The notes below the pieces were generated by a model that did not search any database, had not been told where the DNA came from, and worked only from the letters and a program-made list of their open reading frames with translations. The translations under genes and the position numbers were made by a program. This document shows, piece after piece, positions 8,782 through 21,831 of a stretch of 22,529 bases of DNA. Origin of the DNA: a virus; the IMG/VR virus record IMGVR_UViG_3300048102_000172, positions 1-22,529 of that record. The stretch is one strand, 5' to 3'. Numbering within the stretch: position 1 is the stretch's first letter; each line of letters begins with the position of its first letter.

Positions 8782-10796
8782 TGACAAGGATAGTTCAGTT
8801 TCAAACTAATTTCAGTGTTGGTGAGCTGGACCCATTGCTCCGTGCAAGAACTGATCTAGCGCAATATCAGAACGCTTTAGAAACAGCTGAGAACGTAACA
8901 ATCCAGCCCCAGGGCGGCGCTAGGCGTAGGCCAGGGCTTGAATTTGTTTATAATTTTGGCAGCTCTTTCACCAAGTTTAAGTTAATCCCATTTGAGTACA
9001 GTGTTAATGACAGCTATTTGTTGGTGGTGGTTGTTGGGCGTATCTATGTTTTTAAGAACGGGGTTCTCCAGCAAAACATCAACAGCTCTGGCAACGATTA
9101 TCTTGCTGTTGCTGCTATTACATCTGGGGTTATTGACGAGTTAAATTATATCCAGGCTGTTGATACATTGATTTTGGTGCATCAGAGTTTGGAGCCTCAA
9201 AGGTTATTGCGTAACACCGACACCAGCTGGACTGTTGGCACTTTGACTTTATCTAATGTACCACGGTACGCTTTCACCCTCGCAACTACTGTTGGCTCTA
9301 GCTACAACACTGGAACACCCCACGACCATTTAGAGCCTAGCGGGATCGAGGGTAATATTACTTTGACAGCAAAACATAGCGGTTCAAACGCTAATGTGTT
9401 TAGCGCTTCTGCAGCCAGTTATATCGGCCAATATATTAATGTAACCCCGTTTGGCCGTTTGCGAATTGTGCGTAAAGTTAGCGCAGCACAACTAGAGTGT
9501 TTTGCAGAAGTTCCTTTATTTAACACAAACAACATAGATGATGCTGATTGGGAGTATGAAAGCGGTTACGAAGATACCTGGAGTAACACTAGGGGGTGGC
9601 CAAGATCAGCGGCTTTCCATGAAGGTCGGTTGTATTTTGGCGGCACCACAACTAGGCCCAACACCGTATGGGGCAGCAAGGTTATTCAATTTTTTGACTT
9701 TGATGTTGGCACCGGCCTCGATGACGAAAGCGTAGAAGCTACAATCAACACCAACCAATTGAATGTTATTACGCACTTAAACCCAGGGCCTGACTTGCAG
9801 ATCTTCACAACTGCCGGAGAGTTTGTTGTGGCCCAGCTCGGCAACGAGCCGGTTACGCCTACTAATTTCCTGGTGAAGCCACAAAGCCGCATAGGCAGCC
9901 GGCCTGGCGTTCCTATCGAGGACCTTAAAGGATCAACGATATTTGTGCAGCGCCAAGGTAAGTCTCTTATGGCTTTCCAGTTTCAAGACTCAACATCCAG
10001 TTACGGCGCAAATAATTTGTCAGTATTTAGCAGCCATTTATTAAAAGCGCCTGTTGATATGTCTATTCGCAGGGCAACGTCAACTGATGAAACTGATCGG
10101 TTATTTCTGGTAAACGGGGATGATGGGTCGATGACCGTTTACTCAATATTGCAGGATCAGAATGTTGTGGCCCCCAGTAAGTTTACAACAGACGGTGAAT
10201 TTATAGCTATAGCAAATGAAATCGCTGAAACCTTTACAGTGGTAAAAAGAACTGTAAACAGTGCCACAGTTTATTATTTAGAAAAGTTTGATGAAGGTCT
10301 TACGCTTGATAGCGCAAAAAGCGGCAACGCTGCATCGAGCGTTACAATGGACCACCTGGAGGGAAAGTCTGTAAAAATTGTGCGCGATGGTGTGATCGAG
10401 CCAGATCAAACAGTGCCAGCATCTCCCTTCACTGTGACATTTGGAACGGCTGCCACAGCTTCTCACCAGGTGGGACTAAACTATAATGTCACTATGGTCA
10501 CTATGCCAGCAGAGCCAAAGCTGCCCCAGGGCACGATACAAGGCGTTAAGAAACGTATTGTCCAAGTCGATGCGGTTGTAGCAAACACTCAAAACCTAAG
10601 TATCAACAGCAAGCTAGTGCCATTTAGGAATTTTGGGGTAAGTGTTCTGGGAGATCCTGTTGCGGAGTTTACGGGGACAAAAACGGTGCATGGTCTTTTA
10701 GGTTTTTCTGGAACCGGACAAATTACTGTTACTCAAACAGAGCCACTCAAAATGACTTTGCTTGGCCTTGAGTACAAGATGAGCGTGGGAAATTGA
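8781..10796 (+). CDS. Tail tubular protein B (nozzle), T7 gp12-type
   Basis: A 671-residue protein that forms the tip of the short tail and attaches the fibres (T7 gp12: 794). The N-terminus (QTNFSVGELDPLLRARTDLAQYQNALETAENVTIQPQGGARRRPGLEFV) is diagnostic: F-S-x-GE-x-x-P-x-L-x-x-R-x-D...A-x-x-x-x-N-x-x-x-x-x-GG-x-x-RRPG. A second family mark, WPRSAAFHEGRLYFGGT-x-x-x-P-x-x-x-W-S-like, is at residues about 273-295. Translation is coupled to the previous gene. One base separates its stop from the next ATG. Confidence 0.95.
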   Translation: MTRIVQFQTNFSVGELDPLLRARTDLAQYQNALETAENVTIQPQGGARRRPGLEFVYNFGSSFTKFKLIPFEYSVNDSYLLVVVVGRIYVFKNGVLQQNINSSGNDYLAVAAITSGVIDELNYIQAVDTLILVHQSLEPQRLLRNTDTSWTVGTLTLSNVPRYAFTLATTVGSSYNTGTPHDHLEPSGIEGNITLTAKHSGSNANVFSASAASYIGQYINVTPFGRLRIVRKVSAAQLECFAEVPLFNTNNIDDADWEYESGYEDTWSNTRGWPRSAAFHEGRLYFGGTTTRPNTVWGSKVIQFFDFDVGTGLDDESVEATINTNQLNVITHLNPGPDLQIFTTAGEFVVAQLGNEPVTPTNFLVKPQSRIGSRPGVPIEDLKGSTIFVQRQGKSLMAFQFQDSTSSYGANNLSVFSSHLLKAPVDMSIRRATSTDETDRLFLVNGDDGSMTVYSILQDQNVVAPSKFTTDGEFIAIANEIAETFTVVKRTVNSATVYYLEKFDEGLTLDSAKSGNAASSVTMDHLEGKSVKIVRDGVIEPDQTVPASPFTVTFGTAATASHQVGLNYNVTMVTMPAEPKLPQGTIQGVKKRIVQVDAVVANTQNLSINSKLVPFRNFGVSVLGDPVAEFTGTKTVHGLLGFSGTGQITVTQTEPLKMTLLGLEYKMSVGN

Positions 10797-10797
10797 T

Positions 10798-11328
10798 ATG
10801 TCTCAGATAGTAGCTGGAGTCGTAGGTGCATTTGGCGCCATACTTGGGGGTCAGTCTAAGCAAACGATGTACAACCGAAAGGCGGCTGATGCGCGTCTGT
10901 CTGGTAGAATTACCGCAATAAACTTGCAAATGAAAGGCGCACAAATCCTTTCTAAAGTTAATAGCATTATGTCAACAAGCCTAGCGCGTTCCCAGGTTGG
11001 TGGTGGCGCAACAAACATAACAGCTGTTCAAACAGGGTCATTAAAATACGGCGTCCGTGATTACAGCACGGTCAAAGACAATATTGATATACAATTAGGC
11101 AGGGCCGAAGGACAGGCCCAGGATTACATATATGCTGGAGAGGTCGCTGTTGCTAACTCATACATAGAGGCGATGGGTTCTTTGGCGTCTGGCCATGCAC
11201 AACAATCTCAGCTTGGGTATCCTGAGTTCGGTAAAAGCGCTTCAACCACTTCAACCACTTCTTTTGGAAACCGCACAAGTTATTATAATAGCAGCTCAAG
11301 CTATCAGACTGACCCAGGAGGTTTTTAA
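10798..11328 (+). CDS. Internal virion (ejection) protein, T7 gp14-type
   Basis: A 176-residue protein. Residues about 3-18 (IVAGVVGAFGAILGGQ) are a Gly/Ala-rich hydrophobic segment, as in gp14-type proteins (T7 gp14: 196), which enter the outer membrane early in infection. A helical region (AADARLSGRITAINLQMKG) follows, then a Gly/Thr/Val element, then a Ser/Thr/Tyr-rich C-terminus (residues about 148-176) encoded partly by a 9-bp tandem repeat. Its place right after the nozzle gene and before the gp15-type gene supports the call. CAGGAGG near the end serves the next gene. Confidence 0.8.
   Translation: MSQIVAGVVGAFGAILGGQSKQTMYNRKAADARLSGRITAINLQMKGAQILSKVNSIMSTSLARSQVGGGATNITAVQTGSLKYGVRDYSTVKDNIDIQLGRAEGQAQDYIYAGEVAVANSYIEAMGSLASGHAQQSQLGYPEFGKSASTTSTTSFGNRTSYYNSSSSYQTDPGGF
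11241..11260 (+). repeat. 9-bp tandem repeat in the gp14-type gene
   Basis: TTCAACCAC occurs at 11241-11249 and 11250-11258, followed by a partial third unit. It encodes the STTSTTSF stretch near the C-terminus and may vary between relatives by slippage. Confidence 0.65.
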
Positions 11329-13544
11329 TGGCTCCTAGAATATTAAGATACGAAGGTGGCCAAGAACAGGTGATGCAAGTCAAGCCCTTAGAAGATGCGG
11401 CTTTAGCAGAAACCAGAAATATGTATCGCACTATTTCAGACTCTGTAAACAGAATGGCTAAGTTTTCTTTTGAGCAAGAGTCAAGAGAAGCCAAACAGCG
11501 CGGTATGCAGCGTGTTGCCGATGAGGGTGCCCAGCCCGTATTGTCGGCCATGCAGCAAGCTGGCGGTCCACGAACTATCGAAGATCGCGCAGCTGTAGAG
11601 ACAGCAAACAGGATTGCATCAGCTGAGTTAGAAACCCAGGCGATCTTGGAAATGAACCAAGTGCTTTCTGCCGCTGAACAGCAAGAACTGTCATTAGACG
11701 ATTTTCAAGCTAACCTGGCTGATGTCACAGACGGCATACCGGCAGCACTGTCGGATCTTAATCCGTTGTTGGCGGGTGAGCTGCAAGCAAAGCTAACCGC
11801 AAAAGCTGGGATATTTACACAAAATTACGCTGACTTTTACCACAAGAAAGCAATGCAAGCTGCTAGAGGCCGTGCTTTGGTTGGCATCGACACCAGGCAG
11901 CAAGCTATTTATCAGCTGGCGGCGTCTAATTCTCCAAACGATGGAATACGACTAGCAGTCATAGATGCTGAATTAAAGAATCTTCAGTTCTATATGCAGG
12001 ACCTTCAATTTAGCGAAGAACAGGTATCTAAAATATTTTTAGAAACCAGGGGAAAAGCCATCGAGGAAGGCATCCGGTTTGATTTTTCAGAGCTAGGCTC
12101 TGTGCAAGAACAAATAAAATTTATTTCAAAGCTAGAGAAATCGCCACCAAAGGCTATTGGCAGGGATGCGTCCAGAAAAATAGCATCTACTTTACGCACA
12201 CAAATGAACACTGGCGTTAAAGTAATGAAGGGCCAGGTCAAACTGGCAAGTGATAGAATTGCAGATTTAACAAAAGTAATAGAGGGCGGCGGTCAAATTA
12301 ATGGGGCTGTTTTAGTAAAATTAGAAACTGAGTTGACATCTCTGGACGGTGTTATAGATCCGTCTACTGGTCAGCCTATAAATCTTTCGGCAAGAACAGA
12401 GCTGCAAGAATTAAAAATTGTTGAAAATATATTGTCAGCTTATAGACAATCTACCCCAGAAGAAGCGCAACGATCTTTAGACCAGCTGCAGGGCGGCATA
12501 AGCGGCGCTGGCGGTCCAGGCATTGACACAGTGCTAGAGGTCAAAGCCAGGGACGCTGCCCAAAGTTTTATTACAAACATAAGAGCTAATCTTAAAAAAG
12601 ACGGGATGACTCACGCCCAGACTGTTGGGCTGGTTCAGCCGTCAGCAATTGCGTTTGGGGGCAGCCCAGACGAATTATTTAGCTCGATAGAAAAACGCCG
12701 GCAAGATTACCAGACGGTGCAAAGCGCATACCCTACTTATAACATTGGGCCGTTACGCGAAGGCGAGGTGCAAGTTGTAACGAACGCTATAGAAAACGGA
12801 GATGTGCAAACCCAAATGGAAACTTTGGGGGCTATCGTCCAAGGTTTTCGGCAAGACTCCCCAGCTGTTTTAGAGCAAGTTAGCAAAGAGGCTCCTGTGT
12901 TTGCTCATGTTGGCGGCCTTATGTTAATGGGCAAAACAAAAACAGCCCGTTTGATTTTAGAAGGGATTGCGCTAGGTAAAGAAGGCGGCCCAATGCCGGC
13001 TGATATTACTAGGACCGACATTGAATTATTGTTCCATGAAAATATTGGCAGCGCATTGAACGAACAGTCTGCAGCTGTGACTGGCGCTACATACGAAGCC
13101 ACTATAGCTATCTTTAGATCAAACATGAGCAGAAGCGGCATGGTCAAACAGAAAGCTGCCGGCGATAAAGAAATGCAAACTGCCTTAAATTTAGCGCTAG
13201 GCGGTGACGGCAACCTGGGCAGTGAGGGCCTCGGTGGTGTTAGAACAGTTCGTGACCGGCAAGTCTTGGTGCCGCCTTATCTCAGCGCACCTGGCATGGA
13301 AACCCTTATCAACAATTTAACGCCGGAAACATTTAAGACAGCTTCTGGCAGCGATATAGACGCCGGTATGTTAAATGAAATAAAAGAAAACGATAATATT
13401 TTTCCTCAAGCCATTGGGGATGATAGGTATATTTTTGTCCACGCTGACCCAAATAATATTTCTTTTGTAAAAGTGATGGGCTTTGACGGGGAACCGTTTG
13501 AAATAGATATGCGTGTTTTGTGGGGCAAGGAACCACTGCTATGA
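11328..13544 (+). CDS. Internal virion (ejection) protein, T7 gp15-type
   Basis: A 738-residue, largely helical protein, near the size of T7 gp15 (747). It is rich in Gln, Glu and Ala, with long amphipathic helices (MNQVLSAAEQQELSLDDFQANL, then AGELQAKLTAKAGIFTQNYADFYHKKAMQAARGRALV). It has no enzymatic motif that I can see. In T7 the gp15 protein forms part of the channel across the periplasm. It starts by TAATG overlap behind AGGAGG (11316-11321), and its stop overlaps the next ATG as ATGA. The call rests on size, composition and its position between the gp14-type and gp16-position genes. Confidence 0.8.
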   Translation: MAPRILRYEGGQEQVMQVKPLEDAALAETRNMYRTISDSVNRMAKFSFEQESREAKQRGMQRVADEGAQPVLSAMQQAGGPRTIEDRAAVETANRIASAELETQAILEMNQVLSAAEQQELSLDDFQANLADVTDGIPAALSDLNPLLAGELQAKLTAKAGIFTQNYADFYHKKAMQAARGRALVGIDTRQQAIYQLAASNSPNDGIRLAVIDAELKNLQFYMQDLQFSEEQVSKIFLETRGKAIEEGIRFDFSELGSVQEQIKFISKLEKSPPKAIGRDASRKIASTLRTQMNTGVKVMKGQVKLASDRIADLTKVIEGGGQINGAVLVKLETELTSLDGVIDPSTGQPINLSARTELQELKIVENILSAYRQSTPEEAQRSLDQLQGGISGAGGPGIDTVLEVKARDAAQSFITNIRANLKKDGMTHAQTVGLVQPSAIAFGGSPDELFSSIEKRRQDYQTVQSAYPTYNIGPLREGEVQVVTNAIENGDVQTQMETLGAIVQGFRQDSPAVLEQVSKEAPVFAHVGGLMLMGKTKTARLILEGIALGKEGGPMPADITRTDIELLFHENIGSALNEQSAAVTGATYEATIAIFRSNMSRSGMVKQKAAGDKEMQTALNLALGGDGNLGSEGLGGVRTVRDRQVLVPPYLSAPGMETLINNLTPETFKTASGSDIDAGMLNEIKENDNIFPQAIGDDRYIFVHADPNNISFVKVMGFDGEPFEIDMRVLWGKEPLL

Positions 13545-16500
13545 CTTTTCTTTTTAAGAAAACAGAGTCATTAGAGCAACGCGGTTATCAGCTGCAAGAA
13601 AAACCTACGCCGTCCCTGGAAGAAAATTGGAACGCGGCCACGACTTATGGCAAACTCGCACTAACGTCCACATCTAAGGCCAAGACATACCAAGAAATAT
13701 TGCAGCCTGTGATTGACGAGATGAACGCGGCAAATGTTGGGGAAACATTCCACAACCCTTCTACAGCGTTTTATATTGGTTTGTTTGAACCAGAAAAACA
13801 AACATCTGCTTTCAACCAAAGCCTGGCTAAATTAAATCAAGCAATAGATAGATATCCAGAGTTCGAGCAATACCGAGGGTTATACACTCCAGAAACTGTT
13901 GCATCCCAAGCAGGAGAGATGGCAAGAAACGCCCGTGAAGATTATTTGCGTGTCAGCGGGGAATCACCTTCTACATCAGCTGGTGCAGTAAGAACATTAG
14001 GTGAAATGTACGAGGGGATGGATGACCCTATTTTAATTTCATCTATGTTGTTTGGTGGCGCAAAATCTTTGTGGGGCATGGCCTTTCAAGAAGCGGCCCT
14101 GGGTGCCGGATCGGAGGCCCTGGCTCAAATACCAGTACAACGGTGGCACCAGGAGACTGGTATGCCGTACACTAATGAGCAATATTGGAACGCTGTTAAA
14201 TACGGAGGGGCGATTGGATTTGCCTTTCCGTTTGCGTTTCGTGGTGCCGGCAAAGCAGTAAGCATAACAACAAAACAAGCCAAAAAAGGCATCCAGGCAA
14301 TACGGGCAACTGGCGCTAGACAAACGCCGGACGGGCAAATTGCAGAGGACCTGGCAACAGAACTAGAAGAAATCGTTGCTGATAATCCTTTACAGCAAAC
14401 TCTTTCTGGAGCAGCTGAACATGAACAGCGCCTATCTGACGCTGTAGCAGCCGTTGACGAAAACGTAGCCCCTACTATGCCGGATGCGTCTGCGACCCCT
14501 CCACGGCCATTGTTGAGCGTTACAGACGCCGACAAGGTTGATGGGCTTGTCAAAGTGTTTGACCCTGATGAGGTTGCTGTAGACGCAGAATTATTCCAAT
14601 TCAAAGCCGGCGGTGACGAGTTTGGCGTTACTGAACGATTGCAGGGTGTTACCACCTGGGACCCCATAGCAGCTGGGCAGATCGTTGTTTATGAGTTTGC
14701 TGATGGCCGCAAGTTTATTGCAGATGGGCACCAGCGCCTGGGCCTGGCGAAACGTATCAAGTCACAAGACCCAAGCCAAAAGATCGAGCTGCTTGGGCAT
14801 ACGTTGCGCGAGTCTGATGGTATTACGCCTGACATGGCCAGGGTTATTGCCGCTGTCAAAAACATTAAAGAAGGCACCGGCACCGCTATTGACGCCGCCA
14901 AGGTATTAAGGGATGCGCCGCAACGAGCCGGAGAGCTGCCGCCTCGGTCTGTCTTGGTGCAGCAAGCCAGAGGTCTGACGCTATTAGACGATGAGACATT
15001 TGGCGCTATTATTAACGGGGTGGTTCCGGCTAATTATGGCGCAATCGTGGGCCGGTTAATACCAGATGACCCAGGGTTGCAAAAGAACGCTATCCAAGTT
15101 TTATCTAAAACTGACCCAGCAAACGAGTATCAGGCAGAGTCTATTGTTCGCCAGGTCATTGAGTCCGGCGCAGAAACCAGGACTCAGGAGTCTTTGTTTG
15201 GCGAAGAAATAATTACCGAAAGTTATTTCCTGGAACGGGCAAAAGTGCTTGACCAGGCGAGAAAACAGCTGGGCCAGGACAAGGCTGCATTTGCCAGTTT
15301 ATTACGCAATGCACAACGCCTTGAAGCAGAAGGCAACCAACTAGCACAGAAAGCAAATGAAAGGAGAGCCAGCAATGACTCGCAAGCAATCGGCCTCTTA
15401 CAAGCGCAAGCAAACCGCAAAGGGCCGCTCTCAGACGCCCTCACAGCTGCAGCAAGACAAGCCAGAGAAAGCGGTAGCTACGGACAAGCTACTAGAGGCT
15501 TCATCGAAGCTGTCAGACGATCAATTGAATCAGGCGATTTTGATCGGCTCTCAGCTGGCGATGTTGGACAGTCTATCAATGCTCCAACGGAAGGCCGCGC
15601 AAGTGCGACAGAGCCAGAGCCAGACGTAAGCCTGTTTGATGACCCTAATGGTCCAGGTGTGCAGCGCCAGGCAGATCAGCTAGAAAGCGACCTGATTAGC
15701 GAAGAACAGGCCATTGGCCGTGCGCCGCCAGAGGAAACGGCGGCCACCCGCCAAGAAGGTTTCCAAGAAGATGTTGATCTGCGCCAGGATCTAAAACGAT
15801 TAATTGACGAAGGTGCTGACGAAACAGCGATTGACACACATCCCGCCGTCATCCAGGCATTAGAAGAAGCGCAGTCTATACCGCAAACAGTAGATGCGCC
15901 AGACTTTGGTAGCCAGGCATGGCAAGCAAACCGCACATTTAATTTTGATGGCGAAGAAATCATTGGCTATGACAATGCTATATTCAAAGCATTTGAAGAT
16001 GCACAAATCCTACCATACCGAGAAATGGGCATTGAGGTTCCTGATGCGCCAGTTTTGTATGATCGTAAGGCAACAATTTTAATTGGCCCACCAGCTGCCG
16101 GCAAAAGCACTTTGGCAAACCCAATAGCAATTGAGCAACGGGCTGCAATTATTGACTCAGATGAAATTAAAAAAGCGATGCCAGAGTACCAGGGCGGCAT
16201 TGGCGCTATGGCGGTGCATGAAGAAAGTTCAGAAATAGCCAGGGGCTTGCTTAATACTGTTAAAGATTTTGGTCTAAACGTGGTTGTCCCAAAAGTTGGA
16301 GATAACCCAGCCAGCATACGCAAATTGCAACAAGAGCTAAAAGATGCTGGTTATGAAGTAAAATTGATAAACATGGAAGTCGCTTACCCAGAAGCGCGGC
16401 GGCGTATGTTTGGCAGATTTGTTGAAACAGGCCGGTTGATAGGGCCGGATCATATGCGGATGGTTGGTGACAGCCCAACGCAAACATATTATACTTTGAA

Positions 16501-16888
16501 AGAGGAGGGTGTATTTGATGGATACGCAAACATTGACAACAATGGTGGACTCGATGTCGGGCCAAGACTCACCGATGACAGCTTCAACGGCCCAGAACCA
16601 AAAACAGCCATTGATGGCGTCCAGCTACAATTGGAGCGAGGCCGAGCAGAGAGGGGAGCAGAGGGCAGACCAGATGAAGCTGCAGTCCCAGAAGCTGCGC
16701 CAGCATCTGGAGTCGAGCAAGCCCAAGCCGCAGCAAGGCAAGCGTTAGACGAAACCGAAATACCGATTGGCAGCACAGTAGATGATGCCGGCAACCAGAT
16801 AGCTGTTACAGTTACCAGGCGTCAAATGCTAGATGACATACAGCAAGACAAAACAATGTTAGATAGATTGCGGGAGTGCGCGGTATGA
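13541..16888 (+). CDS. Giant ejection protein with ParB-like and zeta-toxin-like kinase domains
   Basis: A 1115-residue protein in the position of T7 gp16. Residues 1-260 are helical with a hydrophobic stretch (YGGAIGFAFPFAFRGAGK). About 327-460 form a ParB-like domain with IADGHQRLGLAKR (Asp395-Arg399 in DGHQR) followed by KNIKEGTGTAIDAAKVLRD. About 835-990 form a zeta-toxin-like P-loop kinase: GPPAAGKST at 849-857, IIDSDEIKK with Asp872 and Asp874, then VHEESSEIARG and GLNVVVPKVG. Zeta toxins phosphorylate UDP-N-acetylglucosamine; the substrate here is unknown, and no epsilon-type antitoxin is nearby. No T7 gp16-type transglycosylase domain is seen. The combination fits the 'polyvalent protein' class thought to be injected with phage DNA. 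The ATG at 13541 is preferred over GTG at 13520: it forms an ATGA overlap behind AAGGAA. Confidence 0.88.
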   Translation: MTFLFKKTESLEQRGYQLQEKPTPSLEENWNAATTYGKLALTSTSKAKTYQEILQPVIDEMNAANVGETFHNPSTAFYIGLFEPEKQTSAFNQSLAKLNQAIDRYPEFEQYRGLYTPETVASQAGEMARNAREDYLRVSGESPSTSAGAVRTLGEMYEGMDDPILISSMLFGGAKSLWGMAFQEAALGAGSEALAQIPVQRWHQETGMPYTNEQYWNAVKYGGAIGFAFPFAFRGAGKAVSITTKQAKKGIQAIRATGARQTPDGQIAEDLATELEEIVADNPLQQTLSGAAEHEQRLSDAVAAVDENVAPTMPDASATPPRPLLSVTDADKVDGLVKVFDPDEVAVDAELFQFKAGGDEFGVTERLQGVTTWDPIAAGQIVVYEFADGRKFIADGHQRLGLAKRIKSQDPSQKIELLGHTLRESDGITPDMARVIAAVKNIKEGTGTAIDAAKVLRDAPQRAGELPPRSVLVQQARGLTLLDDETFGAIINGVVPANYGAIVGRLIPDDPGLQKNAIQVLSKTDPANEYQAESIVRQVIESGAETRTQESLFGEEIITESYFLERAKVLDQARKQLGQDKAAFASLLRNAQRLEAEGNQLAQKANERRASNDSQAIGLLQAQANRKGPLSDALTAAARQARESGSYGQATRGFIEAVRRSIESGDFDRLSAGDVGQSINAPTEGRASATEPEPDVSLFDDPNGPGVQRQADQLESDLISEEQAIGRAPPEETAATRQEGFQEDVDLRQDLKRLIDEGADETAIDTHPAVIQALEEAQSIPQTVDAPDFGSQAWQANRTFNFDGEEIIGYDNAIFKAFEDAQILPYREMGIEVPDAPVLYDRKATILIGPPAAGKSTLANPIAIEQRAAIIDSDEIKKAMPEYQGGIGAMAVHEESSEIARGLLNTVKDFGLNVVVPKVGDNPASIRKLQQELKDAGYEVKLINMEVAYPEARRRMFGRFVETGRLIGPDHMRMVGDSPTQTYYTLKEEGVFDGYANIDNNGGLDVGPRLTDDSFNGPEPKTAIDGVQLQLERGRAERGAEGRPDEAAVPEAAPASGVEQAQAAARQALDETEIPIGSTVDDAGNQIAVTVTRRQMLDDIQQDKTMLDRLRECAV
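15375..15629 (+). CDS. Candidate nested out-of-frame gene, 84 residues
   Basis: Inside the giant ejection gene, in the +1 frame, AAGGAGA at 15361-15367 lies 8 nt before an ATG that opens 84 codons ending in TAA. The N-terminal 35 residues are basic and Gln-rich (MTRKQSASYKRKQTAKGRS). Residues about 40-75 (KLLEASSKLSDDQLNQAILI, then GSQLAMLDSLSML) look like two amphipathic helices. I recognise no family. It lies between the ParB-like and kinase domains of the host frame, where the host-frame sequence is Ala/Ser/Gly-rich. The ribosome-binding site may be a chance result of the Glu-Arg-Arg codons. Confidence 0.35.
   Translation: MTRKQSASYKRKQTAKGRSQTPSQLQQDKPEKAVATDKLLEASSKLSDDQLNQAILIGSQLAMLDSLSMLQRKAAQVRQSQSQT
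16518..16748 (+). CDS. Candidate nested out-of-frame gene, 76 residues
   Basis: AGGAGGG at 16503-16509, as good a ribosome-binding site as that of the capsid gene, lies 8 nt before an ATG that opens 76 codons in the same +1 frame as the nested frame at 15375. The product (MDTQTLTTMVDSMSGQDS..., then NWSEAEQRGEQRADQMKLQS) is polar, with one probable charged helix near the C-terminus and a basic end (SKPKPQQGKR). It begins right after the kinase domain, in an inter-domain linker of the host protein. I recognise no family; a chance frame is possible. Confidence 0.35.
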   Translation: MDTQTLTTMVDSMSGQDSPMTASTAQNQKQPLMASSYNWSEAEQRGEQRADQMKLQSQKLRQHLESSKPKPQQGKR

Positions 16889-19362
16889 GTTTGCGTGGTT
16901 GCATAGACAACGCTGAGACAGAAGGCACCATAACTTCAGAACAGGCGTCAGAGGCCCGTGATTTGTTTGATGACCTGGAAGCTCAGTACCAAGGCAGGAT
17001 GTCACCAGGGCAAGCCGCTTCACAAGCTGGGCGGGATACGTTTAGCGCATTAGAAAATATTGCCTTACATCGAAAGCGCCAAAAAATATTAGCGTACCAA
17101 AACTGGAAACAAATTACTAAAAACCTCGATGAATACCGTAACTATCGGGGTGAAGTAGATCCGTATAGAGCAGCGATAGCGCATCTCGCCAGGGACGAAG
17201 GCGCCAAATTCTCTGCATTTGAGAACCGCGTTAATGCTGTAACTAATGCTGCAACCAGGAGTATGTATAACGTCCTGGCATCTTTCCGTAAGAATTTAAT
17301 TGGAGGCACCAGGAACAAAGCCAAGCTGCACAGTATGGTTCGGGAGGTGTTTGGAGAGGAAACCGGAGATGCTTCTGCTAGAGAGTTCGCACAAGCCTGG
17401 GCCAAGACAGCTGAATATTTGCGGCAAAGATTTAACGCAGCCGGTGGCAGGATAGTTCAGCGCCAGGGCTGGGGGTTGCCGCAGTTCCACGACACACTGC
17501 AAGTAAGAAAAGCGACATTCCAGGAATGGCGAGATTTTATTGCCCCTCGGTTGAATATTGAAAGAATGGTCGATGAGGGCACCGGCTTGCCAATGACGCC
17601 AGCTCGTCTTGAGCTTGCTTTGAAAGATGTATACGAAACAATCCGCACAGACGGGATGGCAAAGATCACGCCTGGCGCAGCTGCCGGACGCGGCAAAAGC
17701 ATGGCAAACAGGCGTACCGATCATAGATTCCTGGTGTTTAGAAATGCAGACTCATGGATGGAATATCAAACCAAGTTCGGCAACCCCGATGCGTTTGATA
17801 CCATGATGGGCCACATTAGCACTATGTCTAGGGATATCGCATTGATGGAGATCCTGGGGCCAAACCCAAGATCAACAATTAATTTTATGAAAACAACCAT
17901 TGCAAAACGTGCAGCTGGTAATGTTGCCGAGGAAAGCAGGGCGAACAGGGCTGGTAAAAAGCTAGAAGATTTATATATGGCTGCAACCGGAAACGTAAAC
18001 ACGCCTGTTGGCGGGGGCCGGTTTGCGGCAACGATGGCAGGAATTAGACAAGTGCTGCAATCAGCGCAGCTGGGTGCCGCTTCTATATCTGCTTTAACTG
18101 ATCTTAACTTTCAGCGCATTGCCAGGCGTTCAGCTGGGTTGCCTCAAGTTAGAACCGTTACTCAATACCTGGATCAGCTAAACCCACTGACTATCGAGGA
18201 ACGCGGTAAAACGGCTATTCGTATGGGATTGATTGCTGAAGGTTGGATGACTGTCGCGGCAGCGCAAATGCGTTATGTTGGAGATATATCTGGACCAGAG
18301 ATCACCAGGCGAATTGCTGACTTTACCATGAAGGCGTCATTGCTTTCCCCATTTACTAATGCTGGTCGCTGGGCTTTTGGCATGGAGTTCTATGGGACCC
18401 TGGCAGATAATGTTGGCAGAGCTTTTAATGATCTTGACCCCGCATTGCGGCAGACCTTGGAAAAATACGGGATCGGATCTGACAAATGGGACATTATCCG
18501 GTCAACTGACCCATATGAGTATGAAGGAGCTACGTTCTTACGGGCAGAGGATATTGAGTTTCGTGACGATATAAACCCTCGCCTGGCTCAAGACCTGGCC
18601 ACCCGCGTTATGGAAATGGTAGATGCAGAGACAAACTTTGCCGTTCCCAGCTCTAGCCTCAAAGGCAGAGCAACCTTAATTGGAAACACGCAACCAGGGA
18701 CACTGCAGGGAGAGCTGCTTAGATCGTTTGCTATGTATAAGAATTTCGGCGTTACCTTGGTAAACACCCATTTGATGCGCGGGATGGCCCAGGCCGGCAT
18801 AAAAGGCAAAGGCGGTTACTTTGCTGATCTTCTTATCAGCACAACTGTTATGGGTGCTTTTGCTATGCAGCTCAAAGAGATGAGCAAGGGCCGCGATCCT
18901 CGGCCAATGGAAGGCACAGAGTTTTGGCTTGCTGCTTTCTTGCAGGGCGGTGGAGTCGGCATCTATGGAGATTTTCTGTTTAGCGATGTAAACCGGTTTG
19001 ACCGAGGGTTGTCAGAGACTATCGCTGGTCCAGTGATTGGTTTTGTTAATGATGTTAGAAAACTGACTGTGGGCAATTTGCTTGAGGCCGCACATGGAGA
19101 GGACACCAACGCCGCAACGGAAACTGTTAGTTTTGCGTCCAGGTACACGCCTGGCGTATCCCTTTGGTATCTGCGACTGGGGCTGGAGCGAATGGTGTTC
19201 GATAGAATGAAAAGATACACAGACCCTAAGGCTGGCCAGAAGATGCGGCGCTTAGAAAGCAGATATAGACGCGAAACTGGGCAACGGTATTGGTGGCGTC
19301 TTGGGCGTGATGAACCAGGCAGGGCACCAGATTTAGGTAATATGTTGTCTGATGCCCCATAA
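16885..19362 (+). CDS. Large internal virion protein, C-terminal partner of the gp16-position pair
   Basis: An 825-residue protein. The N-terminus (RGCIDNAETEGTITSEQASEARDLFDDLEAQY) and the C-terminal half (GTLQGELLRSFAMYKNFGVTLVN, GGVGIYGDFLFSD, FASRYTPGVSLWYLRLGLERM, then GQRYWWRLGRDEPGRAPDL) are marks of large ejection proteins of many podoviruses and related phages. The stretch at residues about 640-700 is hydrophobic and Gly-rich and may insert into membranes. The ATG at 16885 is preferred over GTG at 16876: GGGAG at 16872-16876 lies 8 nt before it, and it forms an ATGA overlap with the previous stop. With the 1115-residue protein it probably does the job of one T7 gp16. Confidence 0.85.
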   Translation: MSLRGCIDNAETEGTITSEQASEARDLFDDLEAQYQGRMSPGQAASQAGRDTFSALENIALHRKRQKILAYQNWKQITKNLDEYRNYRGEVDPYRAAIAHLARDEGAKFSAFENRVNAVTNAATRSMYNVLASFRKNLIGGTRNKAKLHSMVREVFGEETGDASAREFAQAWAKTAEYLRQRFNAAGGRIVQRQGWGLPQFHDTLQVRKATFQEWRDFIAPRLNIERMVDEGTGLPMTPARLELALKDVYETIRTDGMAKITPGAAAGRGKSMANRRTDHRFLVFRNADSWMEYQTKFGNPDAFDTMMGHISTMSRDIALMEILGPNPRSTINFMKTTIAKRAAGNVAEESRANRAGKKLEDLYMAATGNVNTPVGGGRFAATMAGIRQVLQSAQLGAASISALTDLNFQRIARRSAGLPQVRTVTQYLDQLNPLTIEERGKTAIRMGLIAEGWMTVAAAQMRYVGDISGPEITRRIADFTMKASLLSPFTNAGRWAFGMEFYGTLADNVGRAFNDLDPALRQTLEKYGIGSDKWDIIRSTDPYEYEGATFLRAEDIEFRDDINPRLAQDLATRVMEMVDAETNFAVPSSSLKGRATLIGNTQPGTLQGELLRSFAMYKNFGVTLVNTHLMRGMAQAGIKGKGGYFADLLISTTVMGAFAMQLKEMSKGRDPRPMEGTEFWLAAFLQGGGVGIYGDFLFSDVNRFDRGLSETIAGPVIGFVNDVRKLTVGNLLEAAHGEDTNAATETVSFASRYTPGVSLWYLRLGLERMVFDRMKRYTDPKAGQKMRRLESRYRRETGQRYWWRLGRDEPGRAPDLGNMLSDAP

Positions 19363-19398: not shown

Positions 19399-20682
19399 AT
19401 GGCTGACGTAGCAATTAACCCCGTAACCAGGCGGGTGCAATTCACAGGGAACACTGGCACGGGACCGTTTGCGTTTACGTTTAACATCCTGGTTGCAGCT
19501 GATATTGCTGTTTATAAGAACGCGACCTTGCTCACTCTCACATCAGATTACACTATTAGCACAAACGCTGATGGCACCGGATCTGTAACTCTTACGGGCA
19601 GCGGAAACGGCACTGCTCTAATTAGCGCAGATTTCCTGACGATTGTTGGCGGCAGAGCGTTAGCTAGGACAACCGATTTTGTTACAGCTGGTGATTTATT
19701 GGCCAGCTCTCTAAATGAGCAGCTTGATAGTAATGTTATCATGGTCCAACAGCTGGACGAAAAGTTTACCAGGGCTTTGCGCGTTGACCAGTTTGATGTA
19801 ACAGCTGATATGACAATCCCAGCGAAGGCCACCAGGGCTAACAAGTTTCTGGCGTTCGATGCAGACGGCCTGGCAATTGCGGCCTCGCAAGGTAATTGGC
19901 AGGGTAATTGGGCGTCTGGTTTTGCATACACCAAAGGCGATATTGTAAAAGATACGTCAGATGGCAGTATTTATATTGTCAATACTGGTCACACATCGTC
20001 CGGCTCACAACCAATATCAACTAACGCTGACGCCACTAAATGGGATGAGATGATTGACTTGTCTGGCGTCACAACCGCTGAGACAAACGCATCTAACAGC
20101 GCAACCGCTGCGGCTGGCAGTGCTACTGCTGCGGCAGCTAGTGCAACAGCGGCAGCATTTTCTGACGATTGGGCGGTTAAAACAGATGGCGTTGTTAACG
20201 ATGGCGTAACAACAGACTACTCATCTAAAGCATATGCTATTGGTGGTACTGGTGTAACAGATAGTTCTGGTAAAGGCCCAGCAAAAGATTGGGCTATTGA
20301 AACAACAGGTCAGGTTGACGGCACTGAATACTCAGCTAAAGAGTATGCTGTTGGTACGCAGACCAGAGGCACAACAGGATCTGCAAAAGATTGGGCAACT
20401 TATACTGGCGGCACAGTAGATGGTTCTGCGTACTCTGCTAAGTATTGGGCAGAACAAGCGGCTGCTAGTGCTGATAACGTAGATGATTTGTATCTTGGCC
20501 CTAAAAGCTCAGACCCAACAGTAGACAATGATGGTGACGCTTTAACTACTGGTGATTTGTATTTTAATACAAGCAGTAATGTTTTAAAAGTTTATGACGG
20601 ATCAGCTTGGAATGACGCTGCTGTAGACACCAGTTCGTTTGCAACAAAAGGCTTTAGTATAGCTGTAGCGATTGCCTTATAG
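19399..20682 (+). CDS. Tail fibre protein with T7 gp17-type N-terminus
   Basis: A 427-residue protein. Residues 1-150 (RRVQFTGNTGTGPFAFTFNI, then DYTIS...GSVTLTGSGNGT, then LNEQLDSNVIMVQQLDEKFTRALRV) form the T7-tail domain that anchors a fibre to the nozzle. About 165-215 (GNWASGFAYTKGDIVKD... SIYIVNTGHTSSGSQP...KWDEM) resembles a CBM5/12-type carbohydrate-binding module. Next come an Ala/Ser/Thr helix (NSATAAAGSATAAAASATAAA), three DWA...YSAKEYA repeats, and a phage-fibre element GDLYFNTSSNVLKVYDGSAWNDA near residue 385. AGAGGTG precedes the ATG. It is shorter than T7 gp17 and has no obvious receptor tip, which the following proteins may supply. Confidence 0.9.
   Translation: MADVAINPVTRRVQFTGNTGTGPFAFTFNILVAADIAVYKNATLLTLTSDYTISTNADGTGSVTLTGSGNGTALISADFLTIVGGRALARTTDFVTAGDLLASSLNEQLDSNVIMVQQLDEKFTRALRVDQFDVTADMTIPAKATRANKFLAFDADGLAIAASQGNWQGNWASGFAYTKGDIVKDTSDGSIYIVNTGHTSSGSQPISTNADATKWDEMIDLSGVTTAETNASNSATAAAGSATAAAASATAAAFSDDWAVKTDGVVNDGVTTDYSSKAYAIGGTGVTDSSGKGPAKDWAIETTGQVDGTEYSAKEYAVGTQTRGTTGSAKDWATYTGGTVDGSAYSAKYWAEQAAASADNVDDLYLGPKSSDPTVDNDGDALTTGDLYFNTSSNVLKVYDGSAWNDAAVDTSSFATKGFSIAVAIAL
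20164..20460 (+). repeat. Three imperfect repeats in the fibre shaft (DWA...YSAKxYA)
   Basis: The fibre has three consecutive units of about 35-40 residues, each starting with DWA and ending in Y-S-S/A-K-x-Y/W-A: DWAVKTDG...YSSKAYA, DWAIETTG...YSAKEYA and DWATYTGG...YSAKYWA. The repeat is visible in protein and, less clearly, in DNA (gattgggc near 20167, 20287 and 20391). Repeats of this type occur in phage fibre shafts. Confidence 0.75.
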
Positions 20683-20691
20683 GAGTTAATG

Positions 20692-21039
20692 ATGGCACAA
20701 AATTTTAGACGATATATGCTTCAAGGGGTCGGAACGGTAGCGGCTGACATTCCTGATGGCGGCAACTTTGATAGTTACGACACGCTGGTAGGTATTCACC
20801 TGACCAACATATTAACAAATGCAATCACGGTTGATGTTTATATTCAGCATACAATCAATGGCACTCCTACTAACCATTATCTTATTAAAGGCGCACCCAT
20901 TGCTGCTGGCGGTGCTTTGCAGTTGCTTGATGGCGGTGCAAAAATTGTTGTTCAAACTGGCGATAGATTGTGGGTTAAGTCAGATACAGCATCATCCTTA
21001 GATGTTTGGGTATCTGCTGTTGATGATATTAGTTTATAG
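20692..21039 (+). CDS. Small tail-associated beta protein
   Basis: A 115-residue protein starting MAQNFRRYMLQGVGTV. Two ATGs are adjacent; the second (20692) is chosen because GGAG (20682-20685) is 6 nt before it, against 3 nt for the first. The sequence alternates hydrophobic and polar residues (AITVDVYIQHTINGTPTNHYLIKGAPIAAGGALQLLDGGAKIVVQTGDRLWVKSDTASSLDVWVS), typical of a small beta-sandwich. Similar proteins (N-terminal Y-x-x-x-x-V, then LVGIHLTN...V-x-V-x-I, then G-D-x-L-x-V-x-S) are common next to fibre genes in marine phages. A tail or fibre accessory role is inferred. It lies between the fibre and the next tail gene, with spacers of 9 nt on each side. Confidence 0.7.
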   Translation: MAQNFRRYMLQGVGTVAADIPDGGNFDSYDTLVGIHLTNILTNAITVDVYIQHTINGTPTNHYLIKGAPIAAGGALQLLDGGAKIVVQTGDRLWVKSDTASSLDVWVSAVDDISL

Positions 21040-21048
21040 GAGTAACTA

Positions 21049-21831
21049 ATGGCGTACATAGGCAATCAACAGACGCAAGGTTTTAGCCAAGTACCAGCGA
21101 AACAGGATTTGACTGGTGCTGCTGGCACTAGCCTGACGCTGACACACGCAGTTGCGAGTGCAGAAGGCATTGACCTTTTTATTAATAATGTCCGTCAGGA
21201 AAGTGGTGAAGCCTATTCTATTGCTGGCGATGGCGTAACAGTAACGCTCACAGGCTCAGTGGTAGCGACAGACGATATTTATGTTGTCTACAATTCACTG
21301 GCTTTGCAAACCTCTGTACCGCCGGATGCGTCTGTTAGCACAGCCAAGATTATTGATGGGTCAGTAACCGCTGCCAAGTTAGCGTCTGGTGCTGTAACTG
21401 CCGCTAAAATGCCAACTGGTGCTGTATTGCAAGTTCAGCAAAGTATTGGGTCTACTAGCGCACAGAATATAAGTTCAACAACTTTTGCTGGTATTGGTCT
21501 TAGTGTTAATATTACTCCTCGTGATGCAAACAGTAAGTTTCTTGTGCAGGCAGCAATGGACATAGATGTTGATGCAAACGAACAAACTTTCTTTACAGTC
21601 TTTAGAGATTCTACAGATTTAGGAAGCACTAATGGACTTGTTAATGCTTGGAATGGTACTAATCGTATGATTGTGCCTGTCACTGTTTTAGTTTTAGATG
21701 CTCCATCTACGGCATCACAAATTACCTATGAAATAAAATCAAAGATTGCCCCTGCAATTAGTGGTGCAGCATCAAGATTAAATTCGCAAGGCACTAAAAT
21801 TATAATGACCGTTTCAGAAATAGCAGGATAG
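21049..21831 (+). CDS. Tail fibre-like / receptor-binding protein
   Basis: A 260-residue protein starting MAYIGNQQTQGFSQVP, an N-terminus common in marine phage tail proteins. Residues about 20-90 (QDLTGAAGTSLTLTHAVASAEGIDLFINNVRQE, then YSIAGDGVTVTLTGSVVATDDIYVVY) form a beta domain frequent in such fibres. Residues about 97-126 hold pseudo-repeats (STAKIIDGSVTAAKLASGAVTAAKMPTGAV), a shaft-type sequence. The C-terminal 130 residues (SSTTFAGIGLSVNITPRDANSKFLVQAAMDIDV ... TKIIMTVSEIAG) resemble a trimeric fibre-tip domain. AGGAG at about 21037-21041 precedes the ATG. It is probably an adhesin or part of the fibre tip. Confidence 0.8.
   Translation: MAYIGNQQTQGFSQVPAKQDLTGAAGTSLTLTHAVASAEGIDLFINNVRQESGEAYSIAGDGVTVTLTGSVVATDDIYVVYNSLALQTSVPPDASVSTAKIIDGSVTAAKLASGAVTAAKMPTGAVLQVQQSIGSTSAQNISSTTFAGIGLSVNITPRDANSKFLVQAAMDIDVDANEQTFFTVFRDSTDLGSTNGLVNAWNGTNRMIVPVTVLVLDAPSTASQITYEIKSKIAPAISGAASRLNSQGTKIIMTVSEIAG

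What the first reader, a model, noticed from the sequence alone, without database searches (positions are those of the whole stretch)
13541..16888. Ejection protein carrying ParB-like and zeta-toxin-like kinase domains
Seen: one 1115-residue frame has DGHQRLGLAKR (residues 395 on) with a KNIKEGTGTAIDAAKVLRD element, and a P-loop kinase (GPPAAGKST 849-857, IIDSDEIKK 870-878, VHEESS, GLNVVVPKVG). Known: zeta toxins phosphorylate UDP-GlcNAc; phage 'polyvalent proteins' combine such domains and are thought to enter the cell with DNA; T7 gp16 sits at this place in the virion. Inference: this phage delivers a kinase and a DNA-binding or nuclease domain at the start of infection, perhaps acting on the cell wall precursor pool, on host defence, or on competing phages. 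No epsilon antitoxin is visible, so the toxin would need another control, such as packing in the virion.
Basis: partly seen in the sequence, partly recalled or inferred. Interest (0 to 1): 0.75.

Follow-up and report, generated by a model that had tools for sequence, protein, structure and literature searches.

The report
Phage ejection protein with swappable enzyme
A marine phage protein that is probably injected into the host with the viral DNA carries a toxin-like kinase in a slot where close relatives carry a different toxin-like enzyme (one that makes starvation-alarm nucleotides) or nothing, as if the virus could change its first weapon while keeping the delivery device.

Summary
The 1115-residue protein is real. 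Its zeta-kinase domain is firm: Pfam Zeta_toxin 4e-15; predicted fold matches zeta toxin, Z 16.8. The ParB-like part is invisible to Pfam but folds like Noc/ParB.

The kinase sits in an exchangeable slot between a conserved backbone and a conserved ~45-residue tail. In 122 non-redundant relatives the slot holds a zeta-like kinase (41), a RelA/SpoT-fold alarmone-synthetase-like domain closest to the type VI effector Tas1 (72, inflated by a search seeded with it), or nothing (9); never both, never a third type. Swaps are recent: two phages 97.4% identical over 8.0 kb upstream and 95.9% over 3.4 kb downstream differ in that slot.

Neighbours overlap by ATGA on both sides, leaving no room for an antitoxin gene. 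Catalytic residues are invariant, but zeta's essential Glu116 is an invariant Pro, so the cell-wall precursor is not a safe guess.

Best reading: a podovirus core/ejection protein delivering a swappable ATP-dependent nucleotide-modifying payload. Packaging and delivery are inferred, not shown. New variant of known polyvalent/MuF-toxin themes.

The parts
13541..16888 (+). Gene for the 1115-aa predicted ejection protein with enzyme slot
   Evidence: ORF and translation; ATGA overlap with both neighbours
13541..14530 (+). Residues 1-330: helical N-terminal region, with two weakly hydrophobic stretches (about 164-182 and 224-242)
   Evidence: AlphaFold2 model; hydropathy; no convincing match among phage records
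14549..15160 (+). Residues 337-540: ParB/Noc-like domain (DGHQR motif 395-399) plus helical DNA-binding-like part
   Evidence: Foldseek: Noc 7nfu E 6e-5, ParB 7bnr E 1e-3; invariant D395 G396 H397 Q398 R399 E424 D426 G427 N441 D451
15161..15700 (+). Residues 541-720: conserved helical linker ending in the slot's left border (FDDPNGPGVQRQADQLE)
   Evidence: alignment A1; exchange border at the equivalent place in L062/L114
15692..16750 (+). Exchangeable enzyme slot (about residues 718-1070), here holding the zeta-like kinase
15899..16600 (+). Zeta-toxin-like P-loop kinase fold (residues 787-1020; Pfam match 843-1001)
   Evidence: Pfam E 4e-15; Z 16.8 to 1gvn/3q8x, 15.7 to PezT, 14.8 to AvrRxo1
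16085..16111 (+). Walker A GPPAAGKST, residues 849-857 (K855 = zeta K46)
16160..16162 (+). D874 = zeta catalytic base D67
   Evidence: profile alignment to 1gvn; 19 of 19
16289..16291 (+). P917, where zeta has the essential E116
   Evidence: PMC6356619
16415..16435 (+). R959 and R965 = zeta R158 (by alignment) and R171 (by position, inferred)
16748..16885 (+). Residues 1070-1115: C-terminal tail kept whatever the slot holds (right border of the slot)
11328..13544 (+). Upstream 738-aa neighbour, T7 gp15 position; overlaps the gene by ATGA
   Evidence: no Pfam or PHROG match
16885..19362 (+). Downstream neighbour, PHROG 684 'virion structural protein'; overlaps by ATGA; fused to this protein in L121 and L131
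   Evidence: PHROG E 4e-175
10798..11328 (+). 176-aa protein at the T7 gp14 position of the ejection block
   Evidence: gene order; no family match

Best explanation
It is one of the internal (core/ejection) proteins of a T7-like-organised podovirus, probably marine. Shown: a conserved backbone (helical N-terminus, ParB/Noc-like domain, helical linker) and a conserved short C-terminal tail enclose a slot that is exchanged as a unit and holds either a zeta-type P-loop kinase, a Tas1-like RelA/SpoT-fold synthetase domain, or nothing. Inferred: the protein is packed in the capsid core next to the PHROG-684 protein, leaves the virion through the tail, its N-terminal part lies in or near the envelope, its ParB-like part grips incoming DNA, and the slot enzyme reaches the cytoplasm at time zero. 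Inferred: both payloads do the same kind of chemistry, moving phosphate or pyrophosphate from ATP to a hydroxyl of a nucleotide-like small molecule, so they shift or tag the host's nucleotide pools or signals in the first minutes (host shut-down or counter-defence), and host-dependent selection swaps them. Self-harm is avoided by late expression and packaging, not by an antitoxin (inferred).
For: Zeta: Pfam 4e-15, PDB profile 1.8e-8 to zeta, fold Z 16.8. ParB: Foldseek Noc 6e-5. Alternative payload: PDB profile 1.4e-20 to Tas1, 3.2e-8 to SaSAS; model pLDDT 84.8; Z 14.3 to Tas1, 13.7 to SaEAS. Slot: 41 zeta, 72 alarmone-type, 9 none, 0 other, 0 both; 13 label changes on the backbone tree, where 2 would do if each type had one origin; clean swaps L062/L114, L038/L046 and L050/L099, and L062/L111 up to a cut contig end. 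Purifying selection on most payload pairs. Virion role: gene order tube A, tube B, three proteins, PHROG-684 structural protein, fibre, overlapping downstream start in all three slot states, fusion to PHROG 684 in L121 and L131, and published order of podoviral ejection genes (PMC8954989). No antitoxin.
Against: No virion proteomics for this family was found. The N-terminus shows no homology to the phiV10 gp16-position protein or a MEP301 internal protein. The closest isolate for capsid and tail genes, Methylophilales phage MEP301, has a different ejection block. The ParB-like fold rests on a full-length model of modest quality (mean pLDDT 67.9, about 80 in most of that part). Substrates are unknown: UDP-GlcNAc contacts are not kept, and the syn3 region of most alarmone-type payloads (GYFDRK) matches neither the guanosine (SxH) nor the adenosine (GxN) signature given in PMC12226406.
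Confidence: 0.68

Rival explanations
1. Phage polymorphic toxin for rivals: the payload acts in a co-infecting or neighbouring setting (superinfection exclusion or killing of non-productive hosts), like MuF-Apk2 may do, rather than helping the phage's own infection.
For: Two toxin families alternate in one slot while the carrier stays constant, the hallmark of polymorphic toxins; Apk2 of MuF prophages is a close analogue (PMC12226406).
Against: No room for an immunity gene next to it in any slot state, whereas apk2 is followed by iapK and aph1; the slot is internal, with a conserved tail after it, not C-terminal; the one relative found on a long scaffold of an isolate genome (Novosphingobium, L122) has no payload.
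Confidence: 0.15
2. The slot domains are enzymatic relics or structural fillers that tune packing or length of the ejection protein.
For: The slot can be empty (9 of 122), including what looks like an in-frame deletion remnant in L262.
Against: Catalytic residues invariant across divergent members in both types; dN/dS near 0.1 in most pairs; two unrelated enzyme folds but never an inert domain.
Confidence: 0.1
3. One reading: the zeta kinase phosphorylates UDP-GlcNAc to weaken or block the wall during infection.
For: Family and fold; K46, D67, R158, R171 equivalents kept; a wall role was proposed for zeta domains in polyvalent proteins by Iyer et al. (PMC5512222).
Against: E116, essential for zeta toxicity (PMC6356619), is an invariant Pro; E100 and R120 not kept; other zeta-fold kinases use other substrates (AvrRxo1 phosphorylates NAD, PMC5491322, title and abstract); the alternative payload has no known link to the wall.
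Confidence: 0.12
4. Not a virion protein: a cytoplasmic effector made during infection that merely lies among structural genes.
For: No proteomics; no homology to known ejection proteins.
Against: Embedded between structural genes with overlapping starts in all slot states, fused with the PHROG-684 structural protein in two lineages, and the same place in Dunaliella virus SI2 and, within a larger protein, Prochlorococcus P-SCSP1.
Confidence: 0.1

Closest known systems
Polyvalent proteins (Iyer et al. 2017, PMC5512222)
   Same: Phage protein combining ParB-like and conflict-type enzyme domains, thought to enter with DNA; zeta and RelA/SpoT domains are both recorded there; L121 joins this backbone to ART-PolyVal
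   Different: There zeta was reported for conjugative elements and MuF fusions, RelA/SpoT for spirochaete and epsilonproteobacterial (pro)phages and MuF fusions; no in-place alternation of the two in a podovirus ejection block was seen in the passages read; no peptidase domain found here
MuF-Apk2 phage polymorphic toxins (PMC12226406)
   Same: Phage head-associated carrier with a (p)ppApp-synthetase payload of the same fold class as the alternative payload
   Different: MuF carrier of temperate phages with two immunity genes and a C-terminal payload; here a podovirus core-position carrier, internal slot, no immunity gene
Tas1/Apk1, type VI effector (PDB 6ox6)
   Same: Closest sequence and fold match of the alternative payload
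   Different: Delivered by a type VI system with a PAAR domain and immunity protein (PMC12226406); syn3 region differs
Zeta/PezT toxins (1gvn, 3q8x, 2p5t)
   Same: Fold, Walker A, catalytic Asp, two ATP-site Arg
   Different: No epsilon antitoxin; E116, E100 and R120 not kept; embedded in a 1115-aa protein
Halovirus HCTV-5 gp114 and relatives
   Same: Zeta and ParB domains in one viral protein as annotated
   Different: Zeta lies near the N-terminus (Pfam match at residues 145-317), other backbone, head-gene neighbourhood of an archaeal virus
T7 gp16 / podoviral ejection proteins (PMC8954989)
   Same: Place in the gene order, size, DNA-binding role of the cytoplasmic part
   Different: No homology to the ejection-position proteins tested, no lytic transglycosylase domain found by Pfam

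Membership tests
Zeta_toxin (PF06414) kinase family | Profile match over the curated cut-off | tested here: met
   56.2 bits against 22.3, E 4e-15; also in L004, L005, L006, L008
Zeta_toxin (PF06414) kinase family | Zeta/PezT fold | tested here: met
   Z 16.8, rmsd 3.3 over 202 residues to 1gvn_B
Zeta_toxin (PF06414) kinase family | Catalytic residues K46, D67, R158, R171 | tested here: met
   K855, D874, R959, R965 in 19 of 19; R171 by position only
UDP-GlcNAc kinase (functional zeta toxin) | UNAG-site residues E116, E100, T118, R120 | tested here: not met
   E116 is Pro in 19 of 19; E100 and R120 positions variable; T118 position mostly Lys or Val by alignment (PMC6356619, PMC3062530)
Epsilon/zeta toxin-antitoxin module | Adjacent antitoxin gene | tested here: not met
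   ATGA overlaps on both sides; no antitoxin family among ten small ORFs scanned
ParB/Noc superfamily | ParB-type N-terminal fold plus helical DNA-binding part | tested here: met
   Foldseek Noc 7nfu 6e-5, ParB 7bnr 1e-3; moderate model confidence
ParB/Noc superfamily | Sequence-profile match | tested here: not met
   no credible Pfam or PDB-sequence hit
DdrB-like ParB (PF18763) of polyvalent proteins | Profile match | tested here: not met
   no member of A5 hits PF18763; profile-versus-single-sequence comparison uninformative
RelA/SpoT synthetase family (alternative payload in relatives) | Fold and catalytic Asp/Glu | tested here: met
   Tas1 Z 14.3, SAS Z about 13; K75, K87, D97, R100, E152 invariant in 18
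RelA/SpoT synthetase family (alternative payload in relatives) | Pfam match of single sequences | tested here: not met
   no RelA_SpoT hit for any of 18 members; only the profile and fold searches find it
Podoviral ejection proteins | Position in gene order next to core genes | tested here: met
   order as reviewed in PMC8954989
Podoviral ejection proteins | Presence in virion and ejection | not testable with these tools
   needs proteomics and a translocation assay
Polymorphic toxins | Constant carrier, variable C-terminal toxin and immunity gene | tested here: not met
   carrier constant and payload variable, but the payload is internal and no immunity gene is adjacent

The most novel reading that the evidence does not exclude
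Podoviruses of this group carry a modular time-zero payload bay in an ejected core protein: a dedicated slot, bordered by conserved sequence, that is switched by recombination between two unrelated ATP-dependent nucleotide-modifying toxins (a zeta-type kinase with a changed substrate and a Tas1-type alarmone synthetase) without any immunity gene, giving the phage instant control of host nucleotide pools or nucleotide-based immunity before any phage gene is expressed.
Probability: 0.4. Interest if true: 0.85.

Novelty: new variant of a known kind. Interest (0 to 1): 0.7.

Why it matters
If delivery is confirmed, phages of this widespread group arrive in the cell with a ready-made enzyme, and nature has already made the comparison experiment: near-identical genomes that differ in which enzyme they carry. 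The exported alarmone synthetase SaEAS and Apk1 turn over about 100,000 molecules per enzyme per minute (PMC12691689), so even a few ejected copies of such an enzyme could change the nucleotide pool of a small cell (inference). That makes the old question of what ejected virion proteins do besides making a channel directly testable, and it suggests that the choice of payload tracks host defences or metabolism.

Tried and rejected
Ubiquitin, Adhesin A and Spexin matches are taken as chance: they cover odd parts and vanish or change with the profile. Pfam single-sequence scans of the alternative payload gave only noise until a profile was used; the Vps5, QueH and ArdA hits were rejected for E above 0.01. 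Homology of the N-terminus to the phiV10 gp16-position protein and a MEP301 internal protein was tested and not found. Comparison with the DdrB-ParB protein L202 by hhalign was uninformative. An assembly-chimera origin of the swaps was considered and rejected, because each state recurs in independent contigs (zeta L061, L062; alarmone-type L098, L111, L114) and swaps occur in at least three backbone lineages. Divergence of the slot between window and L002 (90-92% against 98-99% nearby) is not taken as proof of exchange, because tube B and the fibre dip further. The 72 alarmone-type count includes loci fetched with that domain as query; without them it is 41 zeta, 36 alarmone-type, 8 none. Literature searches in the open library found no report of this alternation, which does not exclude one elsewhere. 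MEP301 was tried as a host clue but its ejection block differs, so the host of the window's phage stays unknown.
Full report
What was checked. The window is a 22.5-kb record of a tailed phage with the gene order small terminase, large terminase, portal, scaffold, capsid, tail tubes A and B, four proteins, fibre; the names rest on family matches, matches to annotated phages and gene order. The protein of the finding is the third of the four. Both neighbours overlap it by the four bases ATGA, at 13541-13544 and 16885-16888, so it is probably translated as part of the structural block.

Domains. Residues 843-1001 match Pfam Zeta_toxin at 4e-15. A profile of 19 homologous domains finds the Streptococcus zeta toxin in the PDB at 1.8e-8 and PezT at 2.9e-5. 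In the AlphaFold2 model (mean pLDDT 67.9 overall, about 90 in most of the kinase), residues 786-1020 match zeta at Z 16.8, PezT at 15.7 and AvrRxo1 at 14.8. Residues 337-540 are not seen by any Pfam model or PDB sequence search, but Foldseek places Noc and ParB among the matches of the model with E 6e-5 and 1e-3. The ParB-type reading is therefore a fold-level assignment with moderate confidence. The ParB region is shared by at least 565 stretches in viral contigs, and by P-SCSP1 cyanophages, where it lies in a 2563-residue protein downstream of the tube genes.

Catalytic residues. Using the printed alignment to zeta, K46 is K855, D67 is D874, R158 is R959, and R171 is by position R965; all are identical in 19 of 19 homologues. 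Published mutants show D67, E116, R158 and R171 to be essential for zeta toxicity, E100 and T128 less so (PMC6356619), and T118, R120, E100 and T128 to touch UDP-GlcNAc (PMC3062530). Here the E116 position is proline in 19 of 19, and the R120 and E100 positions vary. The domain is likely an active kinase, but its acceptor is unlikely to be held as UDP-GlcNAc is in zeta. AvrRxo1, of the same fold, phosphorylates NAD (PMC5491322, seen as title and abstract). So the substrate is open, and a nucleotide-like acceptor is the best guess (inference).

The exchangeable slot. In viral contigs the backbone (residues 1 to about 718) and the last about 45 residues are conserved, but the stretch between them is not. 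Some relatives carry the zeta-type kinase, others a domain whose profile matches Tas1, a type VI effector of the RelA/SpoT fold, at 1.4e-20 and the exported synthetase SaSAS at 3.2e-8. A model of that domain (pLDDT 84.8) matches Tas1 at Z 14.3 and alarmone synthetases at about Z 13 (Foldseek). Its Lys, Asp, Arg and Glu at the expected catalytic positions are invariant in 18 sequences. Others have only a short linker. Among 122 non-redundant proteins with complete 3' ends there are 41 zeta, 72 alarmone-type, 9 empty, none with both and none with a third kind. Without the loci that were fetched through the alarmone-type domain the numbers are 41, 36 and 8. L262 looks like an alarmone-type gene whose domain core was deleted in frame.

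The exchange is recent and repeated. On a tree of the backbone alone the three labels need 13 changes, where 2 would do if each type had a single origin; the labels are still more clustered than shuffled ones (mean 20.5), as expected of inherited cassettes that are swapped now and then. L062 (zeta) and L114 (alarmone-type) are 97.4% identical over 8.0 kb up to the slot and 95.9% over 3.4 kb after it, with 940 and 829 bases in between that do not align; L038/L046 and L050/L099 show the same pattern at 86-92% and 74-90%. L111, cut at its 3' end inside an alarmone-type slot, is 99.5% identical to the zeta-type L062 up to the border. Both states recur in independent contigs, so assembly chimeras are unlikely. 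Most close pairs show dN/dS near 0.1 in either payload; L061/L062, with five changes, and L023/L024 (0.52) are exceptions.

Where it acts. Direct evidence for packaging is missing. The inference rests on gene order like that of podoviral ejection genes (PMC8954989), overlap with the PHROG-684 virion structural protein in all slot states, fusions to that protein in L121 and L131, and the same position in Dunaliella viridis virus SI2. Homology to the phiV10 and MEP301 internal proteins was not found. Two weakly hydrophobic stretches near residues 164 and 224 recur in relatives, compatible with a membrane-touching part, but the scores (1.0-1.7) are low for membrane helices.

Mechanism proposed. 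Shown: backbone, slot, two enzyme folds with conserved catalytic residues, swaps, no adjacent antitoxin. Inferred: the protein is stored in the capsid core, ejected, and places the slot enzyme in the cytoplasm before gene expression. The ParB-like part may grip entering DNA, in keeping with the DNA-binding C-terminal part of T7 gp16 (PMC8954989). The two payloads share one kind of chemistry in their known relatives: transfer of phosphate or pyrophosphate from ATP to a hydroxyl group of a nucleotide-type molecule. They may therefore be alternative answers to one task, such as shutting host metabolism or disturbing nucleotide-based defence. Lack of an immunity gene fits late expression in a cell about to lyse, in contrast with Apk2 of temperate MuF phages, which has two immunity genes (PMC12226406).

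Comparison with the known. Polyvalent proteins (PMC5512222) already include ParB-like, zeta and RelA/SpoT domains, and one relative here, L121, is joined to an ART-PolyVal domain. Halovirus HCTV-5 has an annotated zeta and ParB protein with another arrangement. New here, as far as the searches reach, is the strict alternation of two unrelated toxin folds in one bordered slot of a podovirus core-position protein, with near-isogenic natural pairs. This is a new variant of a known kind, not a new category.

Verdict. Observation confirmed; interpretation partly supported; interest 0.70.

Noticed in passing
L003:8001-11729 (and L013; L038, L090, L096 also longer there): An extra segment of about 140 residues (Tudor/KOW-like by eye, 'GGIIVRSADGEEKILELDEL') is inserted near window residue 284 in a gene otherwise 96% identical to the window's: a possible second insertion site.
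   Followed up: partly
L099:5875-9585: The slot holds an extra ParB-like piece ('VRDGNSTYAIAAQAGWPEMPV', by eye) before the alarmone-type domain.
   Followed up: no
L121:5716-13944 and L131:2-4630: The protein is fused to its downstream PHROG-684 neighbour; L121 also carries an ART-PolyVal domain (PF18760).
   Followed up: partly
L262:4954-7440: Looks like an in-frame deletion remnant of an alarmone-type slot.
   Followed up: partly
window 10798-19362 against MEP301 (L116): Methylophilales phage MEP301 matches the window in terminase, portal, scaffold, capsid, tubes and fibre start (34-69%) but not in the four ejection-block genes: the whole block seems to have been exchanged.
   Followed up: partly
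L183, L184, L186, L187, L196, L197, L200-L204: Alarmone-type domains related to the slot payload occur in other phage proteins of 520 to 2807 residues without detectable similarity to this backbone; L202 has a DdrB-ParB domain, L200 an LPD38.
   Followed up: no
window 9001-10200 and 19500-21300: Against L002 the tube B gene and the fibre region fall to 74-82% and about 50-78% identity in an otherwise mostly 96-99% alignment: further exchange hot spots.
   Followed up: no
L031 (Dunaliella viridis virus SI2): A record listed with a green alga as host carries a bacterial podovirus-type structural block with this backbone and an empty slot, suggesting that the true host is a bacterium of the culture.
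   Followed up: no
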